NCBI RefSeq assembly: GCF_013041615.1
Contig: NZ_JABEPQ010000002.1
Span: 1 to 64,000 of the forward strand
Source: Knoellia koreensis
GTDB lineage: Bacteria > Actinomycetota > Actinomycetes > Actinomycetales > Dermatophilaceae
Direction of reading: 5' to 3'
Length of the DNA: 64,000 nucleotides
Numbering within the stretch: position 1 is the stretch's first letter; the number at the start of each line of letters is the position of its first letter. Under the pieces are notes generated by a model that saw only the letters and a list, made by a program, of their open reading frames with translations, was not told the DNA's origin and made no database searches. Positions 768 to 63,762 of this stretch are shown piece by piece. Position numbers and translations under genes: made by a program.

Positions 768-1240
768 TGGATGCCCCGGTTCGGGTCGAGCATCGACGTG
801 AACGACGACGAGGGCGTGATCGACCCCGGCGCACCGGGCAGGCCGATGTCGGAGATCGAGTACGTGCACCGCGCGGTCACCGTGATCGGCTCGCCGGCGC
901 GGAAGTTGTCGGAAATGCTGACGGACAACGAGTTCCGGCAGGACGCCGGTGTCGCCTGGAGTGCGTCCGCCACGACCGCACGGGCCCGGTCCTGCGCCTC
1001 GGTGTAGCTGCGCGCCACCGTCGCCGTCCGCGCCGCGTCCCGGGTGCCGGACTCGAGCATCCCGTTGACCTGGGCTGCGCGCCCGTAGGCGAAGATCAGC
1101 CCGAAGATGAGCAGGATCGAGGGGATGATGATCGTCATCTCGACGGCGAGCGAGCCGCGCTCGCGCGACGCAGCGCGCCCGCCACCGGACCACGGCGACG
1201 GTATGCCGGGTGGTGCCCACGCGGCATACCTCACCCTCAT
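764..1240 (-). CDS. TadE-like pseudopilin (second copy)
   Basis: A 158-residue protein with a basic N-terminus, the motif ERGSLAVEMTIIIPSILLIF and one membrane helix (about residues 33-53), followed by an extracellular domain with two Cys (in ASCRNSL and ARCTYS). TadE-family minor pilins share the E-x-G-x-x-x-V-E entry and are needed for Flp pilus biogenesis. The ATG at 1240 overlaps the previous stop (ATGA), and its own stop overlaps the next start (GTGA), so the operon is translationally coupled. The first 17 codons contain the genome-wide octamer GTATGCCG twice, once forcing an ATA isoleucine codon. Confidence 0.8.
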   Translation of the reverse strand: MRVRYAAWAPPGIPSPWSGGGRAASRERGSLAVEMTIIIPSILLIFGLIFAYGRAAQVNGMLESGTRDAARTATVARSYTEAQDRARAVVADALQATPASCRNSLSVSISDNFRAGEPITVTARCTYSISDIGLPGAPGSITPSSSFTSMLDPNRGIQ

Positions 1241-1656
1241 GGCTGGTCCCCCTCGAACCGCTCCACCGGGCCGTGCGCCGTCTCGGTGATGTTCAGCTGG
1301 AGGAACGGCACCAAGGTGATGGCGTGGCCGCGCACGGTCATGCTGACCCGGCCGGCCTGCTCGTCGTAGGACGGCGTCGCGACCGGGTCGAGCAGGGCCT
1401 CGCGACCCACCGTGGTCGCAAAGCTCTCGGTGTTGTCCGCGACCCCGCCGGAGATGTTCTGGTAGACGGCGGCGTCCTGGGCCAGGCGCAGCTGCGAGAC
1501 GCCTTCGCGCGCAGCCTGGATCGCGACCGACTTCCCGTAGAAGAACAGCGCAGCCTGGACGCAGAAGAAGATGAGGAAGATGAAGCCCGGGGCCAGCATC
1601 GCCAGCTCCACGGCACTGACCCCGCGTTCGCCCCTGGGGCGCCGCGGTCGGGTCAG
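1237..1656 (-). CDS. TadE-like pseudopilin (first copy), probable CTG start
   Basis: A protein of about 139 residues with ERGVSAVELAMLAPGFIFLI and a membrane helix near residues 12-34, then an extracellular region ending ERFEGDQP. The ERG-AVE entry is typical of TadE minor pilins. No ATG, GTG or TTG exists in frame between the flp gene and this motif; the frame stays open upstream but only as a shadow of flp. The best start is the CTG at 1656, which overlaps the flp stop as CTGA, matching the ATGA and GTGA overlaps elsewhere in the operon. The start codon is therefore inferred from operon geometry, while the coding call rests on the family motif. Confidence 0.7.
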   Translation of the reverse strand: MTRPRRPRGERGVSAVELAMLAPGFIFLIFFCVQAALFFYGKSVAIQAAREGVSQLRLAQDAAVYQNISGGVADNTESFATTVGREALLDPVATPSYDEQAGRVSMTVRGHAITLVPFLQLNITETAHGPVERFEGDQP

Positions 1657-1871
1657 CAGGACGAGCCGGCGGGCTGGTTTGCGCAGTTCTCGAGCTGCGA
1701 GCTCTTGTTGCTCACGATGCGGTAGACGACGCCACCGATGATGGACGCCGCCACAACGACCACGGCTGCGATCAGCGCCCACTCCAACGCGCTCGCCCCC
1801 CGCTCGTCGCGGCGGGCCATCTGGGCCCGCAGCAGCGCCATGCGCATGAGTGTCAGTCCTACATCCAGCAT
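1653..1871 (-). CDS. flp: Flp/Fap-type major pilin
   Basis: A 72-residue protein with the Flp pilin signature: short basic leader (RRDERG), then ASALEWALIAAVVVVAASII, a single hydrophobic helix with the Glu five residues into the mature region, and a short tail with two Cys (ENCANQPAGSSC). In Tad systems the prepilin peptidase cleaves just before the hydrophobic segment, and the mature peptide polymerises into the pilus. It lies 52 bases after tadC with its own AGGGGA Shine-Dalgarno, so it is likely translated independently and abundantly. No prepilin peptidase gene is seen in the window. Confidence 0.85.
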   Translation of the reverse strand: MLDVGLTLMRMALLRAQMARRDERGASALEWALIAAVVVVAASIIGGVVYRIVSNKSSQLENCANQPAGSSC

Positions 1872-1923
1872 CGAACCGTGTCCCCTGTCTCGTGATGCTT
1901 GTCGACGTCGGCATGAGGATAAC

Positions 1924-2844
1924 TCACGCCTTGAGCAGCTGGGCCACGGCTGGGAAAGCCAGGAACACCAGGAAGGCCGTGCTGATGAGCATCTGCGCCA
2001 CCAGCATGGACTGTGACTTCTCGCCCTCGTCGCCCTCGGCCTGGGTCAGCTCCTTGCGCCGCATGGTGGCGGCCCGGGCGGACAAGGAGGCCTTGATCTT
2101 CGCGCCGTCGTCGGCTGCCAGCGACAGCGCCCCTGACAGGTCGGTCAGCTCCTCGACGCCGATCTCGCGACCCAGCTCGCCGAGCGCGACCCACGGCGTG
2201 GTGCCGAACAGGCGTGCGTTGGCGAGGGCCTGCCGAATGCGGATGAGGGACCAGTGGTCGGACACCGTGGAGGCCGCGAGCAGCGCCTCCGGGAGGCCAC
2301 GTCCGCCGGCGAGGTTCATTGCGACCAGGTCGAGGAAGATCCCCACGGTGCGGCGGAAGTCGCGACGCCGCGCCTCCGCCTCGCTGCGCACGGCCAGGTC
2401 CGGCAGGAAGAACCCGAGGACACCGAACGCCAGGGCCGCGAACGCCGGGATCGTCGCGGGCAGCGGGATCGCGAAGAGCCGCATGATCCCCCAGATGAAC
2501 GGCGCCAGGAGGAACAGCCCGAGCCCGGCCACGACCTTGGTCGCGAGGTGGGCACCGACCGTGCGACCCATGAGCGCCAGGTCGGTGCGGACCTTCCCCA
2601 GCTCCCAGCCGCGCTCGGTGGCCAGCACCTCGATCCGGTCGCCGAGCCGCGCCATGAACGACTGCGCCCGACCGGCCATCCCCCCGGACTCCAGCCCGGT
2701 CGTGGTGTGGGTCGACATCGAGCGCTGCCCGGTCTCGATCCTCGTCAGGACCGTCGCCAGACCGGGGCGAGGCGCGACGAAGACCCGCACCACGGCATAC
2801 ACACCCAGACCGGTGAGGGCCCCGAAGACCAGCGACGCGATCAT
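1924..2844 (-). CDS. tadC: TadC, type II secretion F domain pilus platform protein
   Basis: A 306-residue inner-membrane protein with a type II/IV secretion F (T2SF) domain. Hydrophobic segments lie near residues 1-22, 100-125 and 128-150, and at the C-terminus (LISTAFLVFLAFPAVAQLL); the cytoplasmic helical bundle sits between about 160 and 280. TadB and TadC together form the membrane platform that the CpaF motor acts on. The ATG at 2844 overlaps the tadB stop (ATGA). The stop is followed by the only sizeable gap within the operon before flp. Confidence 0.85.
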   Translation of the reverse strand: MIASLVFGALTGLGVYAVVRVFVAPRPGLATVLTRIETGQRSMSTHTTTGLESGGMAGRAQSFMARLGDRIEVLATERGWELGKVRTDLALMGRTVGAHLATKVVAGLGLFLLAPFIWGIMRLFAIPLPATIPAFAALAFGVLGFFLPDLAVRSEAEARRRDFRRTVGIFLDLVAMNLAGGRGLPEALLAASTVSDHWSLIRIRQALANARLFGTTPWVALGELGREIGVEELTDLSGALSLAADDGAKIKASLSARAATMRRKELTQAEGDEGEKSQSMLVAQMLISTAFLVFLAFPAVAQLLKA

Positions 2845-3728
2845 GACTGCGCCACCTCGTGTGCCACGGCAGCGGGCGCCTGCACGCCCTCGGTGACGAG
2901 GAAGCGGTCAGTCTTGGACGGGCTCGCCAACCGGCGCAACCACAGCAGCCCACCGAGGAACAGCAGCGCGACGACGCCGAGGACCAGCTGGCCGAGGACG
3001 CTGTTGTAGGGCTCGACGTACTGCCGGTTGAGCGTGCTCATCATGCCCATGATCCCGAGCACGATGACGAGGACGATCCGCACGCTGCGACGGATGCTGC
3101 GCCGGCCCGCCTCGATGCGTCGGCGCATGTCGAGCTCCTCACGCGTCGAGACGGCGAGCGCGGTCAGGACGTCGCGCAGGCCGGGGCCGCGCAGCCGCGC
3201 GTTGAGGACGAGCGAGGCGCAGATGACGTCTGCGCTGGGGTCGTCGAGGTCGTCGGCGAACGCCACCAGGGCACTCGGCAGCGGCTCGCGGATGCGCAGC
3301 CGGTCGACCAGCAGGTTGAGGCTGGGCCGGATCGCGGGACCTGCGTTGGCCGCTGTCGCCGGGATGGCCTGCTCGAGGCCGATCGCGCCGGCGATGGTGT
3401 CGCGCAACGACTCGGTCCACGTGGCGAGGGCCTCGAGGCGGGCGATGCCACGCTTCTCCGAGGCCGAGCTGCCGGCGATGCGGTCCCAGTATGCCGCGAG
3501 GAGGCCGAGCGCGATCGCAGCGACGACCCACCGGGTCGCCACGAGGACGAGGGCCCCGACCACGCCGCCGCGGATGAGCCGCTGGGTGCTGTCGGCGAAG
3601 CTCGCCCGCTGGCGTCGCGGCTTGCCCGCCACACGCTCGGGCACCCCCACCACCGCGAGGACGCCCACGAACAGGCCGACGCCGAGGACGGCACCGGCGA
3701 GGACCGCGAGGAGGGTGGACGAGTCCAT
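2841..3728 (-). CDS. tadB: TadB, type II secretion F domain pilus platform protein
   Basis: About 295 residues, with N-terminal membrane helices (MDSSTLLAVLAGAVLGVGLF and residues 60-85), a T2SF domain in the middle (region ATWTESLRDTIAGAIGLEQA onwards) and a C-terminal helix pair (VRIVLVIVLGIMGMM and LVLGVVALLFLGGLL). It is the partner of TadC in the pilus assembly platform. The ATG at 3728 sits in a TGATG overlap with the cpaF stop; a GTG three codons upstream (3737) is an alternative start inside cpaF. Confidence 0.85.
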   Translation of the reverse strand: MDSSTLLAVLAGAVLGVGLFVGVLAVVGVPERVAGKPRRQRASFADSTQRLIRGGVVGALVLVATRWVVAAIALGLLAAYWDRIAGSSASEKRGIARLEALATWTESLRDTIAGAIGLEQAIPATAANAGPAIRPSLNLLVDRLRIREPLPSALVAFADDLDDPSADVICASLVLNARLRGPGLRDVLTALAVSTREELDMRRRIEAGRRSIRRSVRIVLVIVLGIMGMMSTLNRQYVEPYNSVLGQLVLGVVALLFLGGLLWLRRLASPSKTDRFLVTEGVQAPAAVAHEVAQS

Positions 3729-7061: not shown

Positions 7062-8516
7062 ATGTCGATCGCCAGCAGCCAGCCGCCCGTCGCCCACCGC
7101 ACCGCAAAGCCGGCCACGCGGCATACCGCACCGCTCGCCCATGCCCGGCACCACGCCCACCTGCGCCCCGTGCCCGACCACGCGGTCGAGCCCGCGCCGA
7201 GCCGGCGCATCGGTGAGGTCGGCACGGTGCCGGCCGTGGTGTCGGAGAACCTGCTCGTCCCCACGCTGACCGGGGCGGTCGACTACGCCAACTTCGACCA
7301 CGCCGCGTCAACCCCGGCCCTGGTGAGCGTGAAGGCGGCCGTCGACACGGCGCTGCGCACCTACTCCTCGGTGCACCGGGGCAACGGCTGGGCCAGCAAG
7401 GTGACGTCGGCCTGGTACGAGCAGGCGCGGGCCGAGGTGCGCAGCTTCGTCGGGGCGCGCGAGGGTGACGAGGTCGTCTTCACCCGCAACAGCACCGACT
7501 CGTTCAACCTGCTGGCACGCGCGCTGCCGCGTGACACCCAGGTGTTCGTCTTCGAGACCGAGCACCACGCGGCGCTGCTGCCGTGGGCGGCCCGGCGCAC
7601 CCACCGCCTGCCCGTGCCTGGCAGCGTCGCCGACGCCGAGACCCTGCTGCGGGCCGCACTCAAGGAGCACCACGGCCGCCACCGGCTCGTCGTCCTCGCC
7701 GGCGCCTCCAACGTCACCGGCGAGGTCTGGCCGGTGCGGCGGCTCGCGGCCATCGCACGGCGGGCGGGCGCGCGGGTCGTCCTCGATGCGGCGCAGTACG
7801 CGCCGCACCGGCCGGTGTCGCTGGACGACCTCGGCGTCGACTACGTCGTGCTGTCGGGGCACAAGCTCTACGCGCCGTTCGGCGCCGGCGTGCTCGCGGG
7901 CCGCGCCGACTGGCTCGACGCGGCTGCGCCCTACCTCGCGGGTGGCGGCGCGACGAAGGCCGTCACCGAGCGTGGTGTCGAGTGGCAGGCAGGTGCCGCC
8001 CGACACGAGGCCGGGAGCCCCAACGTGATCGGCACGATCGCGCTTGCGGCGGCGTGCAATGCGTTGCGCACCAACGGATCCGCGATCGAGGCGCACGAGA
8101 CCGAGCTGGGCGACCGGCTGCGCGAGGGGCTCAGCGCGATCGACGGGGTCGAGACCTACTCGATCTTCGGTCCGGACCACGAGCGGGTTGCCGTGGTGAC
8201 CTTCACGGTCGACGGGCTCGACTCCTCGCTCGTGTCGACGGTGCTCTCGGCCGAGCACGGGATCGGGGTGCGGGACGGGAAGTTCTGTGCGCACCTGTGC
8301 GTCGACGCACTGCTCGACGACCCGTATGCCGCGGGCCCGACGACCGCGGTCCGCGCCAGTGTCGGGCTGGCCACGACTGCCGAGCACGTCGAACGCCTCA
8401 TCGCCGCGGTGACGGAGCTGGCCGCACACGGCCCGCGGGCGGCATACGTCCACGGCCCCGGCGGCTGGGCGCCCCAGCACGACCCGCGCGCCCTGGACGT
8501 CGCCCGCCCCTGGTGA
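7062..8516 (+). CDS. Class V aminotransferase, cysteine-desulfurase-like
   Basis: A 484-residue PLP enzyme of fold type I. The PLP lysine is in LSGHKLYAPFGAGVL, the cofactor Asp in VLDAAQYAPH, and a Cys in GKFCAHLC lies where cysteine desulfurases carry the persulfide Cys. The first 70 residues are a low-complexity His/Pro/Ala-rich extension not typical of SufS/IscS. The ATG at 7062 has GAGGAG nine bases upstream. The SAM-IV leader ties it to sulfur or methionine metabolism; a plausible job is mobilising sulfur from Cys or a related amino acid, but the substrate is not deducible. It stands alone, without suf genes around it. Confidence 0.8.
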   Translation: MSIASSQPPVAHRTAKPATRHTAPLAHARHHAHLRPVPDHAVEPAPSRRIGEVGTVPAVVSENLLVPTLTGAVDYANFDHAASTPALVSVKAAVDTALRTYSSVHRGNGWASKVTSAWYEQARAEVRSFVGAREGDEVVFTRNSTDSFNLLARALPRDTQVFVFETEHHAALLPWAARRTHRLPVPGSVADAETLLRAALKEHHGRHRLVVLAGASNVTGEVWPVRRLAAIARRAGARVVLDAAQYAPHRPVSLDDLGVDYVVLSGHKLYAPFGAGVLAGRADWLDAAAPYLAGGGATKAVTERGVEWQAGAARHEAGSPNVIGTIALAAACNALRTNGSAIEAHETELGDRLREGLSAIDGVETYSIFGPDHERVAVVTFTVDGLDSSLVSTVLSAEHGIGVRDGKFCAHLCVDALLDDPYAAGPTTAVRASVGLATTAEHVERLIAAVTELAAHGPRAAYVHGPGGWAPQHDPRALDVARPW

Positions 8517-8613: not shown

Positions 8614-9537
8614 TCAGGCCGCCGCGCGCTCCGCCGCGAGGGCGGCCCGAACCCGGGCCACGATCCGGCCCGGGACGTACAGGTCTGCCCAGGTGAACCT
8701 CACGACCACGTAACCGAGGCGCCGCAACTCGTCCTCGCGACGCTTCTCGGCGATGAGGGCCTCCGTGCCGTCCTCACCGCGGTACTTCTGCAGCCCGTCG
8801 AACTCCAGGAGCACCTTGCTCGCCTTGATGCGCAGGTCGACCCGCGCGACGAATCGCCCTCCCTCGTCGCTGATCTCGTACTGCGGCTCGACCTCGATGC
8901 CAGCCATGGCGAGCTCGACCCGAGTGCGAGACTCCCCGACTGACTCACTGCGCCCATCGGCATACGCGAGCATGGTCCGCACATGGCTCGACTTGGGCCA
9001 GCGCGTCACGAGCTCAGCCAGCTCCTCCACCTCGGCAATCTCGACCCGGGACTCGTGCAGCGCCTGGTCAAGAGCCACGATGCCGGCGATCGGCCCGTCC
9101 TCGAGGGCATGCAGCACCAGTGCCGCCGCGATGCCGGCGGCCCGCCCCGCCTCAGTGTCGACGGAGCCCAGCCAGTCGACCTTGGGGCGGGTTGTCCAGT
9201 GCTGAGCCACCCGTTCGGCCGTGACCGGCCGGGCGATGAGCGCCCGGCCGAGGTCGACGTCGAACACCGGCAACCCGTGCGCGACCACCGCCGAGCGGCA
9301 GATCAGCACCGCATCCGGGTGAAGCCGGGTGATGCCCGCCGTGAGGCGCCGATGAGCATCCTCCGCGCTGAGCGGCTCGGATGGGTGGAACGCGAAGAGG
9401 CTGCGCCCGAGGTGGTCGAGCACGGTCTCCCGCGCCAGCTCCACCAGCCTGAAGGAGCCGAGGCCGACCCGGCTTGCATCGCCAGTGGTGAACACGTCCC
9501 AGGGGCCGCGGTCGATGAGTTGCAGTTGCTTGTCCAT
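8614..9537 (-). CDS. DUF559 (Vsr-like nuclease fold) protein with AbiEi-like N-terminus
   Basis: 307 residues from the ATG at 9537 (the frame is open to 9570). The N-terminal two thirds resemble the winged-helix AbiEi-type regions seen in many actinobacterial DUF559 proteins. The C-terminal 110 residues are DUF559, related to very-short-patch-repair and restriction endonucleases: ARVDLRIKASKVLLEFDGLQ, then KRREDELRRLGYVVVRFTW. The VDLRI Asp, the LEFDG acidic pair and the KRRED Lys are candidate catalytic residues. It is flanked by inverted copies of repeat family A. Such genes are often multicopy and of unknown function in Micrococcales; this one could be a mobile or defence-associated nuclease, which is inference. 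Confidence 0.7.
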   Translation of the reverse strand: MDKQLQLIDRGPWDVFTTGDASRVGLGSFRLVELARETVLDHLGRSLFAFHPSEPLSAEDAHRRLTAGITRLHPDAVLICRSAVVAHGLPVFDVDLGRALIARPVTAERVAQHWTTRPKVDWLGSVDTEAGRAAGIAAALVLHALEDGPIAGIVALDQALHESRVEIAEVEELAELVTRWPKSSHVRTMLAYADGRSESVGESRTRVELAMAGIEVEPQYEISDEGGRFVARVDLRIKASKVLLEFDGLQKYRGEDGTEALIAEKRREDELRRLGYVVVRFTWADLYVPGRIVARVRAALAAERAAA

Positions 9538-12304: not shown

Positions 12305-12445
12305 ACCTGCAGGCTAGCGCGCGGCGGGTGGGTGCCCACGTCGCCGCTCGCCCCACGACACGGATTTGGCGGTATGCCGTCGACGCGTGGCGGTCCTGCA
12401 CGTCACCTCCGGGCGTCGTCGCCGCCCGGTGTTAGCGTTCGGGAC

Positions 12446-13237: not shown

Positions 13238-13282
13238 TCCCGTCGCGCACCGGGCCCACCTCGCGGCATACCCTCGGTGACC

Positions 13283-15819: not shown

Positions 15820-15853
15820 GCGCTCACGGTATGCCGTGGGCCCGCCTCGCGCG

Positions 15854-16973: not shown

Positions 16974-17002
16974 GCGCCCAGCGTAACCACGCGGCATACC
17001 GA

Positions 17003-29801: not shown

Positions 29802-29838
29802 ACTCGGCTCTCCTCGCTCGCCCGGGACGGAAGGCGAC

Positions 29839-39532: not shown

Positions 39533-39683
39533 CCGCCCGCCCCGAACTCGTTCCTGCCTCACGAGCCTGACCCCTGCCACAGCGCGGTCGGTGTGTAGTG
39601 GCCGGCCACAACTCGGGTTTGACCGCGGGGACTCACGACCCGCCAGGCGGTCACGCCAGCGGCGACACGGCATACCTCGCGTC

Positions 39684-40728: not shown

Positions 40729-40893
40729 GGCTCCAGCGTATGCCGTGTGCGTGCGACGCACCGGTCGCGGGCCGGCGCGCGCAGCCCAGCCCTGCGCCAG
40801 TCGGCGCCGTCCGGGTGAACAGCGCGCGGCCAGCAGCCGTCGGCTGGCTGCCGGCGGTGGCACCACCGGCAGCAGCTGTGCTGGTGTGGAGCG

Positions 40894-53524: not shown

Positions 53525-54339
53525 GCAACGTCATCGCCCTGCGCCCGCGGTCGACCATCGCCCTGGCCATCGTGTCGGTCGCCGGGCTCCTGATCTTCCT
53601 GTGGCCGCTGTTCGCGACGCCGGACGCCCGGCTCGGCCAGAACGCCGACGCCCCGCTCGTCTTCGCGCTGCTCATCCCGCTGCTCATGGCGGTGGTGCTG
53701 TTCGAGATCAGCGAGGGCGGGCTGGACGTCAAGGCCGTCGCGATGCTCGGTGTGCTCTCCGCCGTCGGCGCCGCGCTGCGCCCGCTCGGCGCCGGGACAG
53801 CCGGGCTGGAGACGGTGTTCTTCCTGCTGGTGCTGGGCGGCCGGGTCTTCGGCCCCGGGTTCGGGTTCGTGCTCGGCTCGACGACGCTGTTCGCGTCGGC
53901 CCTGGTGACCGGAGGCGTCGGCCCGTGGCTGCCCTACCAGATGCTCGGCGCCGCCTGGGTCGGCCTCGGCGCGGGCCTGCTCCCCCGCGTGCCAGGCCGG
54001 TGGGAGGTGCCGCTGCTCGCGGCATACGGCGCCGTGGCGGGACTGCTCTACGGCTGGCTGCTCAACTTCTCGTTCTGGCCGTTCGCGGTCGGGCTCGGCG
54101 GCGACCTGTCGTTCGTGGCGGGCGCACCACCGTGGGAGAACCTGCGCCGCTTCGGCACGTTCTCGGTCGCCACGAGCCTGTGGTGGGACCTCGGCCGCGC
54201 CCTCACCAACGTCGTCCTCATCTCCATCACCGGGAAGGCCGTCCTCGCGACGCTGCGCCGCGCCAGCCGTCGGGCTGCGTTCGACGACGAGGTGACCTTC
54301 GACGAACCGGTGAGCACGCGGCATACGCTGGCGGGATGA
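53521..54339 (+). CDS. ECF transporter S component, probably cobalamin-specific
   Basis: 272 residues, about six membrane helices (residues 13-30, 44-60, 70-90, 98-130, 142-160 and 175-200) and a soluble, charged C-terminus. ECF S components bind the vitamin. Its position in a cobalamin-riboswitch operon with a complete EcfT and A-A' pair points to cobalamin or a cobalamin precursor such as cobinamide. Substrate assignment is by regulation and context, not by a motif. Confidence 0.8.
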   Translation: MSNVIALRPRSTIALAIVSVAGLLIFLWPLFATPDARLGQNADAPLVFALLIPLLMAVVLFEISEGGLDVKAVAMLGVLSAVGAALRPLGAGTAGLETVFFLLVLGGRVFGPGFGFVLGSTTLFASALVTGGVGPWLPYQMLGAAWVGLGAGLLPRVPGRWEVPLLAAYGAVAGLLYGWLLNFSFWPFAVGLGGDLSFVAGAPPWENLRRFGTFSVATSLWWDLGRALTNVVLISITGKAVLATLRRASRRAAFDDEVTFDEPVSTRHTLAG

Positions 54340-55694
54340 CGCCACCACCCACCGTCCTCGCCGTCGCCACGGTCAGCGACCCTGACGTCAAGGCGGGGTA
54401 TGCGACGGATGAGTCGGTCGGGGCGCAGGCGCCGGAGCACTTCGAGGTCGTGCGGGCGCGCAGCCTCGACGACGTGGTCGAGGTGATGCGCTGGGCCGAC
54501 GCGACGGGCACGCCGGTCGTGCCGCAGGGCGCGCACAGCAGCCTCACCGGCGCCTCGGTCGCGATCGAGGGCGGCGTCGTCCTCAACACCGAGGGCATGG
54601 ACTCGATCACGACGATCGACCCGCTCGAGGGGTATGCCGTCGCGGGGCCGGGTGTGCTCAACAAGGCACTCAAGGACGCGGTCGCCGCCGAGGGCATGTT
54701 CTACCCGCCGGACCCGGCCAGCTCGGCGTTCTGCACGATCGGCGGCAACGTCGCCACCAACGCCGGTGGGCTGTGCTGCGTGAAGTATGGCGTCACCGGC
54801 GACTACGTGCGCGCGCTCCAGGTGGTGCTGCCCGGCGGCGAGGTGATCCGCACCGGCCACCGCACCGCCAAGGGCGTCGCCGGGCTCGACCTCACCGGGC
54901 TGTTCGTCGGGTCGGAGGGCACGCTCGGGGTCGTCACCGAGGTGACCACGCGGCTCATCCCGGCGCCCGACCCAGCGCTCACCGTGCTCGCGACCTTCGA
55001 CTCGCTCGACGCGGCGAGCGCCGCCATCGTCGCGCTGCGCCGCGAACGCCACCTGCCCAGCCTCGTCGAGCTGCTCGACCGTGCCGCGATCGCCGCGGTG
55101 CAGGCCCTGGCCGACTACGGCTTCCCCGACGACTGCGAGGCCGTGCTGCTCGTGCAGTCCGACCGGCCCGGGCACACGAGCGAGGACGTGCAGCGGTATG
55201 CCGGCCTGCTCACCGACGCGGGCGCGGTCGACGTCGCGGTGGCCGACGACCCGGCCGAGGCCGACCTGCTGCTCGCGGGACGGCGGGCGCTCAGCCCGGC
55301 CCTGGAGGCGGAGGGGCCGCGCTACCTCGAGGACGTGTGCGTCCCGGTCGGGCGGCTCGTCGACCTGATCCGCGAGGGGCAGCGCATTGCCGCCGAGCGC
55401 GGGCTCGAGATCGTCATGGCCGGGCACGCCGGCGACGGCAACCTGCACCCGAGCATCTTCTTCGACGCCGCCGACCCCGCGAGCCGCGAGCGCGCCCACG
55501 CGGCATTCACGCTCATCGTCGACGCGGCACTCGGCATGGGCGGCACCATCACCGGGGAGCACGGCGTCGGCTCGCTCAAGGCGCCCTGGCTGCCGCGCGA
55601 GCTCGGCGACCCCATGATCGAGCGGCAGCGCGCCATCAAGGCGCTGTTCGACCCGCGCGGCATCCTCAACCCCGGCCGCGTCTACTGGTCCTGA
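54336..55694 (+). CDS. FAD-linked oxidase (glycolate/D-lactate oxidase GlcD-like)
   Basis: 452 residues. FAD_binding_4 domain (VVPQGAHSSLTGASVAIEGG; IGGNVATNAGGLCCVKYGVT; GLFVGSEGTLGVVTEVTTRL) and a C-terminal FAD-oxidase domain ending in the family signature AGHAGDGNLHPSIFFD, GTITGEHGVGSLK and PRGILNPGRVYW. Oxidises a 2-hydroxy acid such as D-lactate or glycolate. The ATG overlaps the S-component stop (ATGA), so it is probably transcribed with the B12 uptake genes, although a direct link to B12 is not evident. Confidence 0.88.
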   Translation: MTPPPTVLAVATVSDPDVKAGYATDESVGAQAPEHFEVVRARSLDDVVEVMRWADATGTPVVPQGAHSSLTGASVAIEGGVVLNTEGMDSITTIDPLEGYAVAGPGVLNKALKDAVAAEGMFYPPDPASSAFCTIGGNVATNAGGLCCVKYGVTGDYVRALQVVLPGGEVIRTGHRTAKGVAGLDLTGLFVGSEGTLGVVTEVTTRLIPAPDPALTVLATFDSLDAASAAIVALRRERHLPSLVELLDRAAIAAVQALADYGFPDDCEAVLLVQSDRPGHTSEDVQRYAGLLTDAGAVDVAVADDPAEADLLLAGRRALSPALEAEGPRYLEDVCVPVGRLVDLIREGQRIAAERGLEIVMAGHAGDGNLHPSIFFDAADPASRERAHAAFTLIVDAALGMGGTITGEHGVGSLKAPWLPRELGDPMIERQRAIKALFDPRGILNPGRVYWS

Positions 55695-56427: not shown

Positions 56428-57195
56428 TCAGCCGCGCGAATCGCCTTGCGGCGCCTGGCGTTGCCGGCGCTCGCGGTCGGCGGCGTCGAGGGCGTCGGCC
56501 TCCTCCAGCGTGGGCGCGCTGCCGCCGAGCCGGGTCGGCAGGAGGTGCGCCTCGGCGTCCGGCCAGGCCGGGTATGCCGCCTGGTCGGCTTCGAGCTGCG
56601 CGGCCATCGCCGCCTTGACGGTCGCCGTCGCTGCCGCGGGGTCGTCGGCCGCAGCCACCTCGAGGGGGGCGCCGACCGTGATGAACAGCGGTATGCCGTG
56701 CCGGCCCATCCTGCGCGGGTGCCCCTTGGTCCACACTCGCTGCGAGCCCCAGATGGTGACCGGCAGCACCGGCACCCCGGCCTGCTGGGCGAGCCGAACC
56801 GCGCCGCTCTTGAACTCCTTGAGCTCGAACGACCGGCTGATCGTCGCCTCCGGGAAGACACCCACGATCTCGCCGTCCTTGAGGGCCCGCAGTGCCCGCT
56901 CGAACGACTCCTGACCGGCCTCGCGGTCGACCGGGATGTGGTGCATGCCGTTCATCAGCGGCCCGGCCACCGGGTTCGCCCAGATCGACTTCTTTGCCAT
57001 GAACCGCACGAGGCGACCGACCTCGACGCCGGCCAACCCGGCATACGTGAAGTCGAAGTAGCCCGTGTGGTTGATGCACATCACCGCGCCACCGGTGCGG
57101 GGCACGTGGTCGAGCCCGCGGAGGCGGATCTTCAACCCCTGGAAGGCGAACAGCGTGCGCGCGACGCCGATGACGCCCTGGTAGACCGGCTCCAT
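56428..57195 (-). CDS. 1-acyl-sn-glycerol-3-phosphate acyltransferase (PlsC-like)
   Basis: 255 residues from the ATG at 57195. PlsC/LPLAT family: catalytic NHTGYFD (NHx4D) after VMCINHTGYFDFTYAGLAGV, substrate-binding FPEATISR, and the P-V-x-x-V-T/I region VPVLPVTIWGSQRV. The C-terminal 60 residues are Ala/Glu-rich. Acts at the membrane in phospholipid or related lipid acylation. Divergent from valS. Confidence 0.87.
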   Translation of the reverse strand: MEPVYQGVIGVARTLFAFQGLKIRLRGLDHVPRTGGAVMCINHTGYFDFTYAGLAGVEVGRLVRFMAKKSIWANPVAGPLMNGMHHIPVDREAGQESFERALRALKDGEIVGVFPEATISRSFELKEFKSGAVRLAQQAGVPVLPVTIWGSQRVWTKGHPRRMGRHGIPLFITVGAPLEVAAADDPAAATATVKAAMAAQLEADQAAYPAWPDAEAHLLPTRLGGSAPTLEEADALDAADRERRQRQAPQGDSRG

Positions 57196-57292
57196 GGCCA
57201 CACCCTAGGCGCTCCGGCTGTGACCCGCCCTCGTGTCTGCCACCGGCATACCGATTGGAGTCGCCGCGGCCGCCAATGGGAAGATTCCCCCC

Positions 57293-59944
57293 ATGACCGA
57301 CGCTCCGTCCACGCCTGCTGCCACTCGCATCCCCGACCGCCCGAGCATCGACGGGCTCGAGGACAAGTGGGCGCAGGTATGGCGTGAGCAGGGCACGTAC
57401 ACCTTCGACCGCGAGGCGGCGGCCGCGGCCGGGCGCGACAAGGTCTTCTCGATCGACACCCCGCCGCCGACCGCGAGCGGCAGCCTGCACATGGGTCACG
57501 TGTTCAGCTACACGCACACCGACTGCATGGCGCGCTACAAGCGGATGACCGGCCACCACGTCTTCTACCCCATCGGCTGGGACGACAACGGCCTGCCGAC
57601 CGAGAAGCGGGTGCAGAACTACTACGGCGTGCGTGGTGACGCGTCGCTGCCGTTCGACCCCGGGTTCGAGCCGCCGCACCGCGGGGATGCCAAGAGCCTC
57701 AAGGCTGCCGACGCGACGCCGATCTCGCGGCAGAACTTCATCGACCTGTGCGACGAGCTGACGGTCGAGGACGAGAAGGCGTTCGAGAGCCTGTTCCGCC
57801 GCATGGGGTTCAGCCTCGACTGGGACATCAGCTACCGCACCATCGACGACCACTCGCGCGCGACGGCGCAGCAGGCGTTCCTGCGCAACCTCGCCCGCGG
57901 CGAGGCCTACCAGGCGGAGGCGCCGGGGCTGTGGGACGTCACCTTCCAGACCGCGGTCGCCCAGGCCGAGCTCGAGGCCAAGGACTACCCGGGCGCGTTC
58001 CACCGGGTCGCGTTCCACCGCCCCGACGGGGAGCCGGTCTACATCGAGACGACGCGCCCCGAGCTGATCCCCGCGTGCGTCGCGCTCGTGGCCAACCCCG
58101 ACGACGAGCGGTATGCCGCGTTGTTCGGCACCACGGTCACCTCACCGTTGTTCGGGGTCGAGGTGCCGGTGCTGCCGCACCGGCTGGTCGAGCAGGACAA
58201 GGGTGCGGGCATCGCGATGTGCTGCACCTTCGGTGACCTCACCGACGTCATCTGGTGGCGCGAGCTCCAGCTGCCGACGCGGTCGGTCATCACCCGCTCC
58301 GGTCGCATCCAGGCCGAGACGCCGGAGTGGATTGCGGGCGGTCCGGGTGCTGGCCTCTTCGCCGACGGTCTCGCGGGCAAGACGACGTTCTCGGCGCGCG
58401 AGGCGGTCGTGGCCGCGCTGCGCGAGTCCGGCGACCTCGACGGCGAGCCGGTGCCGACCCAGCGCAAGGCCAACTTCTACGAGCGCGGCGAGAAGCCGCT
58501 CGAGATCGTCACGTCGCGCCAGTGGTACATCCGCAACGGTGGCCGCGACGCCGAGCTCAACGAGCAGCTGCGCGCCCGCGGTCGCGAGATCGACTTCCAC
58601 CCGGCGTTCATGCGCAGCCGCTACGAGAACTGGGTGGCCGGCCTCAACGGCGACTGGCTCATCTCGCGGCAGCGGTTCTTCGGCGTGCCGATCCCGGTCT
58701 GGTACCCCGTCGACGACTCCGGCGACCCCGTGTGGGACAAGCCGCTGGTGCCCACCGAGGACCAGCTGCCGATCGACCCGCGCGCGCAGGCGCCCGACGG
58801 CTACGACGAGTCGCAGCGCGACCAGCCGGGCGGGTTCACCGGCGACCCCGACATCATGGACACGTGGGCGACGTCGTCGCTCACCCCCCAGATCGCCGGG
58901 CGCTGGCGCGACGACAAGGCGCTGTTCGACCTCGTCTTCCCGATGGACGTCCGCCCGCAGGGTCACGACATCATCCGCACCTGGCTGTTCGCCACGGTCG
59001 TCCGCTCGCACTTCGAGTTCGATTCGGTGCCGTGGACGAACGCCGCCATCAGCGGCTGGATCCTCGACCCCGACCGCAAGAAGATGAGCAAGTCCAAGGG
59101 CAACGTCGTCACCCCAGAGGACGTCGTCAAGGAGCACTCCACCGATGCCGTGCGCTACTGGGCGGCCAGCGGTCGCCTGGGCGCCGACGCGGCATACGAC
59201 ACCGGTCAGATGAAGGTCGGGCGACGGCTCGCGATCAAGATCCTCAACGCGAGCAAGTTCGCTCTTTCCTTTGGCGGAGCCGAAGCCAATCAGCTCAGCG
59301 GTGAGGTCGACGGCGACCTGTCGGCCGCGGTGACCGACCCGCTCGACAAGGCCATGCTCGCCCGCCTGGGCGAGGTCGTCGACGCCGCCACCGCGGGCTT
59401 CGAGGCGTGGGACTACACCCGCTCGCTCGAGCTGACCGAGACCTTCTTCTGGGCGTTCTGCGACGACTACCTCGAGCTCGTCAAGGACCGCGCGTACGGC
59501 AGCCGGGGTGAGGAGGGCGCGGCGTCCGCGCGGGCCGCGCTGCGGATCGCGCTCGACGTGCTACTGCGGCTGTTCGCGCCGATCCTGCCCTACGCCACCG
59601 AGGAGGTCTGGTCGTGGTCGCACGACGGCTCGGTGCACCACGCGACCTGGCCCACGCGCGCCGAGGTGGCGGCCGGTGAGGGCGGCGACCCGGCGCTCCT
59701 GGGCGCGGTCGGCGAGGCTCTCGCGGGGGTCCGCAAGACCAAGTCCGAGGCCAAGGTGGGCATGCGCGCCGAGGTCGCCAAGGTGACGCTGGCCGGTCCC
59801 GCCGGTTGGGCCGACCTCGTGCGCGTCGGTGAGGACGACCTGCGCGCGGCGGGCCGCATCACCGGCTCGATCGACTACGCCGAGGCCGAGACCCCGGTCG
59901 CGCGTGACGCCGAGCTGATCCCGGTGGAGAAGCCGAAGGCCTGA
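57293..59944 (+). CDS. valS: Valyl-tRNA synthetase
   Basis: 883 residues. Charges tRNA-Val. HIGH motif as HMGH at 66-69 (PTASGSLHMGHVFSYTHTD), editing domain (VYIETTRPELIPACVALVAN), KMSKS in PDRKKMSKSKGNVVTPEDVV, anticodon-binding domain. No long C-terminal coiled coil is seen, so it is the shorter, archaeal-like form found in many Actinobacteria. The ATG at 57293 is chosen; the frame is open back to 57233. The 3' end overlaps the convergent papain-like gene by 70 bases. Confidence 0.95.
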   Translation: MTDAPSTPAATRIPDRPSIDGLEDKWAQVWREQGTYTFDREAAAAAGRDKVFSIDTPPPTASGSLHMGHVFSYTHTDCMARYKRMTGHHVFYPIGWDDNGLPTEKRVQNYYGVRGDASLPFDPGFEPPHRGDAKSLKAADATPISRQNFIDLCDELTVEDEKAFESLFRRMGFSLDWDISYRTIDDHSRATAQQAFLRNLARGEAYQAEAPGLWDVTFQTAVAQAELEAKDYPGAFHRVAFHRPDGEPVYIETTRPELIPACVALVANPDDERYAALFGTTVTSPLFGVEVPVLPHRLVEQDKGAGIAMCCTFGDLTDVIWWRELQLPTRSVITRSGRIQAETPEWIAGGPGAGLFADGLAGKTTFSAREAVVAALRESGDLDGEPVPTQRKANFYERGEKPLEIVTSRQWYIRNGGRDAELNEQLRARGREIDFHPAFMRSRYENWVAGLNGDWLISRQRFFGVPIPVWYPVDDSGDPVWDKPLVPTEDQLPIDPRAQAPDGYDESQRDQPGGFTGDPDIMDTWATSSLTPQIAGRWRDDKALFDLVFPMDVRPQGHDIIRTWLFATVVRSHFEFDSVPWTNAAISGWILDPDRKKMSKSKGNVVTPEDVVKEHSTDAVRYWAASGRLGADAAYDTGQMKVGRRLAIKILNASKFALSFGGAEANQLSGEVDGDLSAAVTDPLDKAMLARLGEVVDAATAGFEAWDYTRSLELTETFFWAFCDDYLELVKDRAYGSRGEEGAASARAALRIALDVLLRLFAPILPYATEEVWSWSHDGSVHHATWPTRAEVAAGEGGDPALLGAVGEALAGVRKTKSEAKVGMRAEVAKVTLAGPAGWADLVRVGEDDLRAAGRITGSIDYAEAETPVARDAELIPVEKPKA

Positions 59945-60576
59945 ACGGTGCGGGCTCCCGTGGGTTGCACCGCGACCCACGGGACGTCCCAGCCCGCGAT
60001 GCCGAGTTTCCGTGCGGCAAAACAGTTTTCGTCGAGCAACGTGACCTGCCCGGTGGCCGGGTCGTAGACGTCGAGGATGCGGTCGCCGTCGCCCGGCAGG
60101 ACGAGCGTGACGTGGCGCGGCAGGAGGCCGTTGCCGATGTAGAGCAGCGCCGGCTCGCCCTCGGCGACGACGTCGACGAGCCGTGAGTGCGCGGCGCGGA
60201 GCCGACCGCGGTCGAGGGGGCGCAGCCACCGCTGGTGGTACTGCGTGCCACGCCTCGAGGCGCCGAACTCCAGCTCCTTGCCCGCTCCCCACGGCGGGGT
60301 GCCGAGGGCGTGCGGCCACGGCACGTTGAGTCGCCTCCCTGCTCCCAGCAGCCCGTTCGTGCGGCGCATGACGACGCGTTCGTATGCCGCGAACCGCGCC
60401 TGCTCGTCACGGCCGGGGGGCGCGTCGGCGCGCGGCCCCTCCCCCGTGGTGATCCAGCGCGCGAACTCGGGGTTCACCAGCATGCGGGCGACGGTGAGGC
60501 AGGCCGAGCCACACGTGACCGGGCTCTGCTGCACCGGTCCGATGTCGCCCTGCCGCAACCGGTAACCCGAGGTCAT
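59875..60576 (-). CDS. Papain-like (C39-type) cysteine peptidase-fold protein
   Basis: 233 residues from the ATG at 60576. N-terminal QQSPVTCGSACLTVARMLVN resembles the Gln-x-x-x-x-x-Cys-Gly catalytic start of C39-like papain folds. The C-terminal PRHVTLVLPGDGDRILDVYD with DPATG supplies the expected His and Asp/Asn. It is cytosolic by appearance (no signal peptide). Role unknown; it might process peptides. Its last 70 bases lie inside valS on the other strand, and downstream in-frame residues are low quality, so the true end may be nearer. Confidence 0.65.
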   Translation of the reverse strand: MTSGYRLRQGDIGPVQQSPVTCGSACLTVARMLVNPEFARWITTGEGPRADAPPGRDEQARFAAYERVVMRRTNGLLGAGRRLNVPWPHALGTPPWGAGKELEFGASRRGTQYHQRWLRPLDRGRLRAAHSRLVDVVAEGEPALLYIGNGLLPRHVTLVLPGDGDRILDVYDPATGQVTLLDENCFAARKLGIAGWDVPWVAVQPTGARTVQAFGFSTGISSASRATGVSASA

Positions 60577-61282: not shown

Positions 61283-62328
61283 CCGAAGCTGACGGGGTGG
61301 TCCGCCGGCAGCCGCGCCGGCAGACCGAACTTCTCGAAGAGCTTCTCGTCGAAGAAGGCCGCCACGTGGCTGACCTTGCCGCCCTCGATCGTCAGCACCT
61401 GCAGGTGGAACGGCGTGAACGTGCCGTCGTCCTGGCGCATGTAGAGGCCGAACGCCGGCTGCCCGTTCGCGGTCGTCGCGACCATCGGCATGTCGTGCAC
61501 GCCGCCGGGGCACTGGGAGTCGATGAGGCGCCCGATCGCGTCGGCGCCGGAGTACCAGCCGGTGAACGGCGGCATCTCCCAGATGGCGTCGGCCTTGAGC
61601 ATGCTCACGATGGCGTTGATGTCCTTGTCCCAGAACGCCTGGACGTAGCGGTCGAGCAGCTCGCGCCGGTCCTCGGCCAGGTCGTCCTCGACGGTGTCGG
61701 CCGTGACGTGGGCCTTGGCGATCTGGGCGTGCGCCCGCTGGAGCGCGGAGTTGACCGCCGCCTCGGTCGTGTCGAGCGCCTCGGCCACCTCGGCGGCGCG
61801 CCACCGCAGCACGTCGCGCAGGATCAGCACCGCGCGCTGACGGGCCGGCAGGTGCTGGAGGGCCGCCACGAACGCCAGCCGGATCGTGTCACGCTGCGCG
61901 ACGATCGCCGCCGGGTCGGACTCGTCGGTGCCGACCAACGGGTCGGGCGCGGGCTCGAGCCACGAGATCTCGTTCGACGCCACGACCTGCTCCCCCGGCT
62001 CGCTCGCCGGCGCACCCAGCCCGGTCGGCAACGGCCGCCGGTCCTTGCCCTCGAGGGAGGTGAGGCACACGTTCGTGGCGATCCGGTAGAGCCAGGTGCG
62101 CACCGACGATCGCCCCTCGAACGCGGCATACGCCCGCCACGCCCGGATGTAGGTCTCCTGGACGAGGTCCTCGGCGTCGTGGATCGACCCGGTCATGCGG
62201 TAGCAGTGCGCGGTGAGCTCGCGACGGTAGGTGTCGGTGAGCGACGGGAAGTCCTCGGTGCGCCGTTCGCGCGTCTCCGGCTCTCGCAACTCCGTGTCGC
62301 GCAGCTCCGTCTCGCGTACCTCGGTCAT
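61279..62328 (-). CDS. sigG: SigG-like ECF sigma factor with C-terminal SnoaL-like domain
   Basis: 349 residues. The N-terminus has an Arg/Glu repeat (VRETELRDTELREPETRERR). Sigma2: LTAHCYRMTGSIHDAEDLVQ, ETYIRAWRAYAAFEGRSSVR and TWLYRIATNVCLTSLEGK. Sigma4: ALQHLPARQRAVLILRDVLR with WRAAEVAEALDTTEAAVNSA. A C-terminal SnoaL-like domain (about 215-340) contains FWDKDINAIVSMLKADAIWE. This layout and sequence match the SigG group known from mycobacteria, whose C-terminal domain controls activity in place of a classic anti-sigma factor. Confidence 0.85.
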   Translation of the reverse strand: MTEVRETELRDTELREPETRERRTEDFPSLTDTYRRELTAHCYRMTGSIHDAEDLVQETYIRAWRAYAAFEGRSSVRTWLYRIATNVCLTSLEGKDRRPLPTGLGAPASEPGEQVVASNEISWLEPAPDPLVGTDESDPAAIVAQRDTIRLAFVAALQHLPARQRAVLILRDVLRWRAAEVAEALDTTEAAVNSALQRAHAQIAKAHVTADTVEDDLAEDRRELLDRYVQAFWDKDINAIVSMLKADAIWEMPPFTGWYSGADAIGRLIDSQCPGGVHDMPMVATTANGQPAFGLYMRQDDGTFTPFHLQVLTIEGGKVSHVAAFFDEKLFEKFGLPARLPADHPVSFG

Positions 62329-62512
62329 GGGTCTCCTCGCGTGGTCCCGGCGTGTCCGTGCGAACTCAGGTCAGCCTCGCACACCCCTACCGACCGGCGC
62401 CGCCACGAAAACTCATCGCTCGCGGCACGACTTCCGTGAATTGGTAACGAACCGGACGCAGCGGCCGCAAGGGACTACCGCCGACCTGCGCAGATGCCTA
62501 GGGTCGAGGACC

Positions 62513-63256
62513 GTGACGAGGCGCGGGTGGACCCTGGGGGTGGCGACGGCGGCGACGCTGCTGCTGTCCGCGTGGGTGGCCGCGGCCGGGCCGGTCGGCA
62601 TCTTCGCCGCGCAGAGCATCTCCGGCAAGGAGTCCAGCGCGCCCGGCGAGGAGTACGCCAGCGGCGCCATCCGGAGCGGAGCGGCGGTCAAGACCCGGGC
62701 CGGCACGACGCACACCGACAGCCTGATGACCGCGATCGTGTCGTGGGTGCTCACCATCGTGCTCGTGGCTGTGGTGGTGTTCGTCCTCGTCGCGGTCGTG
62801 CGCTCCATCCGCGACACGCTCGCCCGGCACCGGGTCGACCCGACCGAGGAAGGCGCGGGCAGCGAGCTCACCCCCGAGCGCCTGCGCGCCGCCGCGCAGG
62901 AGAGCGAGGAGCTGCTCGCCCGCGGCACCCCGAGCAACGGCGTCATCGCCGCCTGGGTCTCGCTCGAGGACGCCATCACCTCCGCGGGCATCCACCAGAA
63001 CGAGGCACGCACGCCCGCCGAGATCGTGACCGCCGTCATGCGTTCGTATGCCGTGGACGCGGGTGCGCTCGACCGGCTCGCCTCCCTCTACCGCGAGGCC
63101 CGTTTCTCGCGGCACGAGGTGGGCGAGGACATGCGCGACCAGGCGCGCACGGCCCTGCGGCAGGTCACGGCCGACCTCGCTCGGGCCGAGGCGCCCAAGG
63201 CTGCCCGGCCTGCGCGCGCCGGCGCGGGCGGACCCTCGGCGGGAGGCGTCCGGTGA
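62513..63256 (+). CDS. DUF4129 membrane protein
   Basis: 247 residues from a GTG. An N-terminal signal/anchor helix (GVATAATLLLSAWVAAAG), a second helix (IVSWVLTIVLVAVVVFVLVA, about 76-105) and a cytoplasmic C-terminal DUF4129 domain (SNGVIAAWVSLEDAITSAGI; SYAVDAGALDRLASLYREAR; RFSRHEVGEDM). DUF4129 proteins occur in MoxR-DUF58-DUF4129 operons, thought to act as chaperone-like modules at the envelope. First gene of that operon here. Confidence 0.8.
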   Translation: MTRRGWTLGVATAATLLLSAWVAAAGPVGIFAAQSISGKESSAPGEEYASGAIRSGAAVKTRAGTTHTDSLMTAIVSWVLTIVLVAVVVFVLVAVVRSIRDTLARHRVDPTEEGAGSELTPERLRAAAQESEELLARGTPSNGVIAAWVSLEDAITSAGIHQNEARTPAEIVTAVMRSYAVDAGALDRLASLYREARFSRHEVGEDMRDQARTALRQVTADLARAEAPKAARPARAGAGGPSAGGVR

Positions 63257-63762
63257 TCGCCCGGATCAGGGGCCTGGCACCCACGAGCCAGCTCGTCCTG
63301 GCCCTCGGCGTCGCCGTCGTCATCGGCGCCGTCGTGACGCTCGCACCCGGGACCCTCAACGTCGCCACGCTGCTGGCCTGCCTGGCCGTGCTCGCGGCCG
63401 TCGCCGTCCTCACCCAGTGGCTGTGGCAGAACCACCGCGGCACCGACTGGTCCAACGCCTTCACCGACCCCCATCCGCCGCGGGGCACCGACCCCCGCGT
63501 GAACCGCCTGGCCGCCCGCGTCGACGCCGCCGTCGCCGGTGATGCCGTCGCCCAGACCGAGCTGCACGACCAGCTCCGCACGCTCGCCGAGGACCGCCTG
63601 CGCAGCCGCCACGGCATCGTCCTCGACGGCGGCCCCGACCACACCGAGCGCGCCAGGGCCGCCCTGGGCGCCGACCTCACGGCATACCTCACCAATCCCC
63701 CGACCACCCGGCTCGACCACGCCCGCGTCGCCGGGTACCTCACCACCCTGGAGGAGCTCTAG
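63253..63762 (+). CDS. Hypothetical two-helix membrane protein of the MoxR operon
   Basis: 169 residues from a GTG that overlaps the previous stop. Two adjacent membrane helices (SQLVLALGVAVVIGAVVTLA and VATLLACLAVLAAVAVLTQW), followed by a soluble helical part (DPRVNRLAARVDAAVAGDAV and later). Not assigned to a named family. Genes like this sit between DUF4129 and MoxR in many actinobacterial operons. Confidence 0.72.
   Translation: MIARIRGLAPTSQLVLALGVAVVIGAVVTLAPGTLNVATLLACLAVLAAVAVLTQWLWQNHRGTDWSNAFTDPHPPRGTDPRVNRLAARVDAAVAGDAVAQTELHDQLRTLAEDRLRSRHGIVLDGGPDHTERARAALGADLTAYLTNPPTTRLDHARVAGYLTTLEEL

What the first reader, a model, noticed from the sequence alone, without database searches (positions are those of the whole stretch)
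1201..63687. A dense genome-wide octamer, GTATGCCG/CGGCATAC
GTATGCCG starts at 1201, 3489, 8324, 12372, 13889, 15829, 16421, 18281, 21885, 23769, 25302, 25619, 29131, 31258, 31852, 33205, 35946, 40738, 40998, 43082, 45931, 47014, 51784, 54632, 55196, 56572, 56691, 58111, 60382, 63046. CGGCATAC starts at 1222, 2793, 7119, 8440, 8958, 11650, 13264, 15534, 16992, 20757, 21228, 23219, 24521, 26259, 28083, 28413, 29796, 31419, 31725, 33671, 36044, 39668, 42979, 45888, 46945, 50599, 53062, 54019, 54319, 57039, 57244, 59190, 62124, 63680. At about 72% G+C one expects about two. Several reading frames are used (Tyr-Ala, Ala-Tyr, Gly-Ile-Pro, Gly-Met-Pro, Val-Cys-Arg), and the motif brings in rare ATA, TAT, GCA and GTA codons, so selection seems to act on DNA. 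Density near one per kb and balanced orientation are like the uptake sequences of Haemophilus and Neisseria; no such sequence is known to me in Actinobacteria. A Tad pilus locus (needed for transformation in Micrococcus luteus) and a TfoX-N gene are in the window. A modification, repair or nucleoid-protein site is an alternative.
Basis: partly seen in the sequence, partly recalled or inferred. Interest (0 to 1): 0.88.

Follow-up and report, generated by a model that had tools for sequence, protein, structure and literature searches.

The report
Family-wide DNA tag with dialects
One family of actinobacteria carries up to thousands of copies of the same eight-letter DNA word, spaced as if each DNA strand needs its own set, and some relatives use a one-letter variant; it looks like a self-recognition tag for DNA exchange, a kind so far described in two other bacterial families.

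Summary
In detail: 64 copies of GTATGCCG in the window (1 expected), 3986 in the 4.28-Mb genome, 1983 on one strand and 2003 on the other (reversed-word control 114). It is a family trait: of 163 family genomes at least 90% complete, 90 carry it, 6 carry the one-base variant GGATGCCG, 9 are intermediate, 58 lack both. By eye none of 273 genomes of other families of the order is enriched. Carriers and non-carriers interleave on trees; two genomes carry both words. One mobile element lacks it. Copies in the same orientation avoid each other within about 1.25 kb (219 seen, 394 expected); copies in opposite orientation do not (452). A second genus repeats this; Neisseria uptake sequences show it weakly. 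So each strand seems to be read separately. Best explanation: a self-recognition sequence of natural transformation, read strand by strand (confidence 0.5). RecBCD Chi is ruled out as a general explanation; another Chi-like or repair site is not. No recognising protein was found. The Tad locus in the window is accessory and is no evidence.

The parts
1201..1208 (+). octamer; with 1222 forms an inverted pair
1222..1229 (-). octamer; with 1201 forms an inverted pair
2793..2800 (-). octamer
3489..3496 (+). octamer
7119..7126 (-). octamer
8324..8331 (+). octamer
8440..8447 (-). octamer
8958..8965 (-). octamer
11650..11657 (-). octamer
12372..12379 (+). octamer
13264..13271 (-). octamer
13889..13896 (+). 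octamer
15534..15541 (-). octamer
15829..15836 (+). octamer
16421..16428 (+). octamer
16992..16999 (-). octamer
18281..18288 (+). octamer
20757..20764 (-). octamer
21228..21235 (-). octamer
21885..21892 (+). octamer
23219..23226 (-). octamer
23769..23776 (+). octamer
24521..24528 (-). octamer
25302..25309 (+). octamer
25619..25626 (+). octamer
26259..26266 (-). octamer
28083..28090 (-). octamer
28413..28420 (-). octamer
29131..29138 (+). octamer
29796..29803 (-). octamer
31258..31265 (+). octamer
31419..31426 (-). octamer
31725..31732 (-). octamer
31852..31859 (+). octamer
33205..33212 (+). octamer
33671..33678 (-). octamer
35946..35953 (+). octamer
36044..36051 (-). octamer
39668..39675 (-). 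octamer
40738..40745 (+). octamer
40998..41005 (+). octamer
42979..42986 (-). octamer
43082..43089 (+). octamer
45888..45895 (-). octamer; close inverted pair with 45931
45931..45938 (+). octamer; close inverted pair with 45888
46945..46952 (-). octamer
47014..47021 (+). octamer
50599..50606 (-). octamer
51784..51791 (+). octamer
53062..53069 (-). octamer
54020..54027 (-). octamer (reader wrote 54019)
54319..54326 (-). octamer
54632..54639 (+). octamer
55196..55203 (+). octamer
56572..56579 (+). octamer
56691..56698 (+). octamer
57039..57046 (-). octamer
57244..57251 (-). octamer
58111..58118 (+). octamer
59190..59197 (-). octamer
60382..60389 (+). octamer
62124..62131 (-). octamer
63046..63053 (+). 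octamer
63680..63687 (-). octamer

Best explanation
GTATGCCG, with a weak 3' tail (about C9 G10 T11 G12 G13), is a self-recognition sequence used in natural transformation and homologous DNA exchange in this actinobacterial family, working like the uptake sequences of Neisseria and Haemophilus. A recognising protein favours DNA carrying the word, so fragments with a copy replace fragments without, and copies build up to about one per kb. Lineages lose the word when recognition is lost, or switch to GGATGCCG when its specificity changes. The spacing suggests that each strand is tested separately over about 1 to 1.5 kb: a second copy on the same strand adds nothing, a copy on the other strand does. 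That fits recognition of single-stranded DNA (donor DNA that is single-stranded, or the strand passed in by ComEC). Shown here: the enrichment, the family spread, the dialect, the interleaved presence and absence, absence from one mobile element, the strand-specific spacing, and ComEA, ComEC and TadA-type genes in the genome. Inferred: competence, uptake bias, the recogniser, the direction of change, and the single-stranded stage.
For: Abundance and balance: 3986 copies, 1983/2003; largest split among 13 stretches of up to 50 kb is 22 to 32. Family trait: (186 genomes); none of 273 other genomes of the order by eye. Dialect GGATGCCG in 7 of 186 genomes, 3 genera (G026, G071, G083, G084, G202; with GTATGCCG in G085 and G086), like two DUS words in one genome of Simonsiella (PMC3630211, passages). 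At least 8 forced label changes on each tree. Relics: 3 of 3 aligned sites read GTACGCCG in one octamer-free sister. Conservation: in ten of ten comparisons among carriers kept sites exceed control, e.g. 10 of 16 against 3.9, 8 of 17 against 3.4. A 10.9-kb element with a serine recombinase (named by eye) has none. Strand-specific spacing: same-strand pairs under 1250 bp 219 against 394 (p 4e-22), opposite 452; second genus 0.57 and 1.03 of expectation; in this genome only control words overlapping the octamer show it. ComEA lies beside ComEC in 40 of 40 loci, which had been picked by their ComEC. Carriers and dialect genomes at least 90% complete have two or more TadA-type loci (96 of 96); 9 of 58 non-carriers do not.
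Against: ComEC is in 180 of 186 genomes, octamer or not, so the known uptake genes do not separate carriers from non-carriers. The Flp/Tad locus at L191 is missing from several carriers. No recogniser was found. The accessory Tad locus of the window, absent from congeners, still holds four octamers, so acquired DNA is not always free of them. Neisseria DUS in 300 kb shows weak avoidance that is not limited to one orientation, and orientation did not affect uptake in Haemophilus (PMC1939737, passages). ComEC constraint in carriers against non-carriers is inconclusive (odds ratio 2.2, permutation 0.065). The dialect genome G083 shows the spacing weakly (0.92 and 1.21), and 4 of 21 genomes had more same-strand than opposite neighbours, one a tie. 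In a second carrier/non-carrier pair only 1 of 7 aligned sites reads GTACGCCG. Dialect sites are mostly not at octamer positions of relatives. Two octamer-free genomes, G011 and G180, have a mild excess of GGATGCCG (1336 and 1210) that I cannot place. The trees do not say whether changes were gains or losses. Competence of any member was not tested.
Confidence: 0.5

Rival explanations
1. A Chi-like site: a helicase-nuclease that processes double-strand ends (AdnAB or another, not RecBCD) recognises the word in one orientation only and switches from degradation to recombination.
For: Orientation-dependent recognition predicts the same-strand avoidance seen. Absence from a mobile element fits.
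Against: RecC is absent from all 10 congeners, which carry the octamer, and present in many octamer-free genomes. Candidate Chi words are called by polarisation, consecutive copies on the same strand more often than chance (PMC8022716, passages); here consecutive copies are mostly on opposite strands (203 same, 406 opposite). Enrichment of order 100-fold (657 against 4.6) is above Chi (recalled). AdnAB is thought not to respond to Chi (recalled, not tested); its distribution was not searched.
Confidence: 0.2
2. A strand mark for repair or modification: a one-strand methylation or nicking site needed within about a kilobase on each strand, for example to tell old from new strand.
For: A separate need on each strand over about 1 kb fits the spacing; a modification enzyme could drift in specificity and give dialects.
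Against: No such gene was looked for and no methylation data are at hand. Actinobacteria lack MutSL repair (recalled). Many lineages do without the word.
Confidence: 0.12
3. A binding site of a chromosome-organising or segregation protein.
For: Same-strand spacing is more regular than random (CV 0.72 and 0.79).
Against: No marked orientation bias in the stretches examined, unlike KOPS; overall spacing is close to random (CV 1.04); many relatives lack the word.
Confidence: 0.08
4. A mutational or repair bias that creates the word, or a dispersed repeat family.
For: None positive.
Against: No one-mismatch neighbour with a sizeable expectation is strongly depleted (lowest GTATGACG 2 against 5.2, GTCTGCCG 38 against 49.8); their sum is 454 against 340. 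No shared flank beyond a weak 3' tail. Orthologous sites are conserved.
Confidence: 0.03

Closest known systems
DNA uptake sequence (DUS) of Neisseriaceae
   Same: Non-palindromic word near one per kb, strand-balanced, in genes and between them, some inverted pairs, single-base dialects across a family, two dialects in one genome.
   Different: Other word and phylum; no PilM-type pilus gene in this genome; same-strand avoidance strict here, weak in the DUS sample; function and receptor unproven.
Uptake signal sequence (USS) of Pasteurellaceae
   Same: Short core; a one-sided extension (intergenic sites); similar density (recalled, and counts in PMC1939737 passages); word variants across the family (PMC3630211 passages).
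   Different: Sequence unrelated; uptake there does not depend on orientation (PMC1939737, passages).
Chi sites
   Same: Orientation-dependent recognition would explain the spacing.
   Different: Chi is polarised and, in Proteobacteria, tied to RecBCD (PMC8022716, passages); both tested and not met here.
HIP1 octamer of cyanobacteria (recalled)
   Same: Very abundant octamer shared by related genomes.
   Different: HIP1 is palindromic; this word is not, so strand effects can exist.

Membership tests
DNA uptake sequence (DUS/USS) | Short non-palindromic word at about one per kb, far above chance | tested here: met
DNA uptake sequence (DUS/USS) | Both orientations equally common, no chromosome-scale bias | tested here: met
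   1983/2003 in the genome; largest split 22 to 32 in 13 stretches of up to 50 kb
DNA uptake sequence (DUS/USS) | Scarce in recently acquired DNA | tested here: inconclusive
   none in one 10.9-kb mobile element and in two small contigs of lower G+C that were not annotated; but four in the accessory Tad locus of the window
DNA uptake sequence (DUS/USS) | Host has DNA uptake genes (ComEA, ComEC, pilus) | tested here: met
   octamer-free relatives have them too
DNA uptake sequence (DUS/USS) | DNA with the word is taken up preferentially | not testable with these tools
   needs a transformation or uptake assay
DNA uptake sequence (DUS/USS) | Cognate receptor such as ComP | tested here: inconclusive
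   no discriminating gene among ComEC, ComEA, PilM and two TadA queries; other genes not examined
Chi site | Consecutive copies on the same strand (polarised) | tested here: not met
   203 same, 406 opposite
Chi site | Presence of RecBCD | tested here: not met
   RecC in 1 of 11 genomes of the genus, all with the octamer; the window's own genome does have it
KOPS (FtsK-orienting sequences) | Strong orientation bias along each replichore | tested here: not met
   near-balanced in 13 stretches; replication origin not located
HIP1 | Palindromic octamer | tested here: not met
   the sequence itself

The most novel reading that the evidence does not exclude
The first self-DNA recognition code in a Gram-positive phylum, read on single strands: a dialect-bearing word that must be present on each DNA strand within about 1 to 1.5 kb, so recognition acts at a single-stranded stage of transformation and not at the cell surface on duplex DNA as in Neisseria and Haemophilus.
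Probability: 0.3. Interest if true: 0.95.

Novelty: new variant of a known kind. Interest (0 to 1): 0.9.

Why it matters
[quoted passage not shown] A third, in Actinomycetota, would show that self-recognition of DNA evolved in cells with no outer membrane, and would give a tool to transform strains that are hard to manipulate.

Tried and rejected
Rejected: the window's Tad locus as the relevant machinery. A PilM-type pilus: 7 of 186 genomes, not this one. A RecBCD Chi site. A single conserved Flp/Tad locus as the requirement. GTACGCCG as a dialect in octamer-free genomes: better read as decayed octamers with the Tyr codon TAC, though only 1 of 7 sites in a second pair reads so. Instability of direct repeats as the cause of same-strand avoidance: longer Neisseria words show it less. 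Compositional artefact: 144 control octamers in this genome and 96 in G190 were compared; in G000 only three words, all overlapping the octamer, fall below a same/opposite ratio of 0.83 (octamer 0.48); in G190 two non-overlapping words reach 0.58 and 0.69 (octamer 0.55).

Inconclusive: residue association of ComEC and ComEA with the octamer, ComEC constraint. Thresholds for carrier, intermediate and non-carrier (390 and 140 copies) were chosen after seeing the counts and the table was copied by hand. On the trees G202 was still labelled negative and G083 intermediate, before the dialect was known; on the LeuS tree the label is no more clustered than in shuffles (126 of 500 as low), on the ComEC tree it is (18 of 500). 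Ten literature searches listed no paper whose title or abstract start deals with this word in Actinobacteria; one search found 643 papers holding the letters, of which I saw only the 20 listed.
Full report
Observation. The window holds 64 copies of GTATGCCG (30 on +, 34 on -), where 100 dinucleotide shuffles give a mean of 1.02 and an order-2 Markov model 1.33. The genome of the window (4,282,418 bases, 15 contigs) holds 1983 + 2003 = 3986 copies, 0.93 per kb; the reversed word gives 114. In 684 kb of that genome there are 657 copies against 4.6 from an order-3 Markov model with sites masked; the 24 one-mismatch words sum to 454 against 340.

Anatomy. The core is eight bases. In 79 fully intergenic sites, free of codon constraint, the 3' side keeps C at +9 (53 of 79), G at +10 (60), and preferences at +11 to +18; on the 5' side only -1 stands out (G, 45 of 79). 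Of 616 sites in 624 kb, 473 lie in called genes, 131 between genes (about 110 expected) and 12 at edges; 358 of the 473 read Tyr-Ala or Ala-Tyr, the rest Gly-Ile-Pro, Met-Pro, Val-Cys-Arg or Arg-His-Thr; 259 are on the sense and 214 on the antisense strand (a crude gene caller of my own). Close pairs up to 60 bp in 684 kb are 19 convergent, 8 divergent and none in the same orientation.

Spread. In the family of the window 186 genomes were counted. By completeness of at least 90% and thresholds chosen afterwards, 163 remain: 90 carry the word, 6 carry the dialect below, 9 are intermediate and 58 lack both. Counts in the genus of the window run from 625 to 3986 in 11 of 11 genomes. A sample of 297 genomes of the order includes 273 of other families; by eye none is enriched, the highest total being 177 with a control of 135. 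In 11 of 11 carriers sampled with 40 kb or more the word is the top octamer; in 20-kb samples of ten others it is top in 8, not in G006 and G025.

Dialects and absences. G083 has GGATGCCG 32 times in 20 kb against 1.7 expected, and G202 18 against 1.5. Across 186 genomes GGATGCCG reaches 3619 to 4480 copies, strand-balanced, in G026, G071, G083, G084 and G202; G085 and G086 have 2195 and 2099 of it and 1217 and 1189 of GTATGCCG. Elsewhere it runs from about 240 to 1240, except for G011 (1336) and G180 (1210), two octamer-free genomes whose congeners have fewer. On LeuS (34 rows) and ComEC (40 rows) trees carriers and non-carriers interleave on both sides of the deepest split, with at least 8 forced changes each. 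The trees do not give the direction; an old origin with repeated loss is my reading. One octamer-free sister, G127, reads GTACGCCG at all 3 aligned carrier sites (8 in the locus), but another, G131, at 1 of 7; GTACGCCG is in excess in several non-carriers. Among carriers of the genus and two neighbouring genera, aligned sites in one 20-kb region are kept more than control octamers in ten of ten comparisons: from 10 of 12 against 2.9 and 8 of 10 against 2.0 down to 4 of 14 against 2.6. Dialect sites of G083 and G202 are not kept above control in relatives as a rule; a few aligned positions hold GTATGCCG there, for example 2 of 11 in G190.

Acquired DNA. A 10.9-kb gap in contig C1 holds an element with what reads by eye as a serine recombinase. 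Contigs C2 and C3 (22 kb together, G+C 0.66, not annotated) have no copy where about 20 are expected. Against this, the accessory Tad locus of the window (764-6744) holds four copies.

Strand-specific spacing. Neighbouring copies are usually in opposite orientation: 203 same and 406 opposite at 100 bp or more (p 1e-16). Same-orientation pairs closer than 1250 bp number 219 where 394 are expected (20 against 79 below 250 bp); opposite pairs number 452; from 1250 to 5000 bp both are at 1.03 of expectation. G190, of another genus, gives 0.57 and 1.03. Over 20 other carriers the neighbours are 206 same and 307 opposite (p 9e-6), but 4 of 21 genomes go the other way and one ties, on small numbers. 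The dialect in G083 shows it weakly (0.92 and 1.21). Control octamers do not show it in G000 apart from words overlapping the octamer; in G190 two unrelated words reach ratios of 0.58 and 0.69. In 300 kb of Neisseria gonorrhoeae the 10-base uptake word gives 0.84 for same pairs, opposite pairs are also thinned at 250 to 500 bp (26 against 39), and neighbours are 109 same and 125 opposite. So in this genome, and in at least one other genus, each strand behaves as a separate target over about 1 to 1.5 kb.

Mechanism. Surface recognition of duplex DNA predicts avoidance regardless of orientation. A reader that sees one strand only predicts what is observed: a second copy on the same strand is redundant, a copy on the other strand is not. 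Two processes fit: recognition of single-stranded DNA in transformation, and a translocating enzyme that reads one orientation, as RecBCD reads Chi. RecBCD itself is excluded as the general reader (RecC in 1 of 11 genomes of the genus, 89 of 186 in the family), and Chi polarisation is the reverse of what is seen. The dialect, the patchy presence and the density favour the uptake kind. ComEC is in 180 of 186 genomes; ComEA lies beside it in 40 of 40 loci, fetched by their ComEC. These permit but do not prove competence. Micrococcus luteus, an actinobacterium, needs two tad loci for transformation (PMC4322843, passages). Here 96 of 96 carriers or dialect genomes at least 90% complete have two or more TadA-type loci at E 1e-20, while 9 of 58 non-carriers, from 5 of 16 genera, have one or none; four carriers of lower completeness show one. 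No single Tad locus tracks the word. ComEC is not clearly more constrained in carriers.

Known context. Passages of PMC12616744 state that only Neisseriaceae and Pasteurellaceae are known to discriminate in this way. PMC2346458 (first of three parts read), PMC1939737 (passages) and PMC3630211 (passages) describe uptake words; what I saw of them does not mention strand-specific spacing. Ten literature searches listed nothing on this word (see Tried and rejected for what was seen).

Noticed in passing
window 764-6744: Accessory Tad locus (TadE, weak Flp, two T2SSF, T2SSE, SAF by Pfam); TadA 86% identical to one in Nocardioides sp. CER19, no close relative in congeners.
   Followed up: partly
window 17057-19621: Large protein, exported-looking by eye, with a lamin tail domain and a weak endonuclease/exonuclease/phosphatase match, perhaps a secreted nuclease.
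   Followed up: no
window (four places, not located): Four copies of a 12-mer, GCGGAAAAGCTG, far above chance.
   Followed up: no
L016 and L017 (G065): 10-mers such as GCGGATTCAC, 8 copies each in 40 kb of a genome that lacks the octamer.
   Followed up: no
genera g50, g16, g5, g12: The reversed control word GCCGTATG is itself raised there; in G062 two octamers overlap at a 7-base step (C1:15914 and 15921), hinting at longer local dialects.
   Followed up: no
L044 and L045 (G014): Besides GTATGCCG, the words GTATGACG and GTATGGCG are enriched, perhaps a relaxed dialect.
   Followed up: partly
L149 (G134): Long C runs: CCCCCCCCCC counted 22 times against 0.1 expected in 20 kb.
   Followed up: no
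NZ_CP119140.1 and others in the plasmid collection: Records of chromosome size labelled as plasmids.
   Followed up: no
G011 and G180, genus code g2: Mild excess of GGATGCCG (1336 and 1210 copies) in two octamer-free genomes, above their congeners.
   Followed up: no
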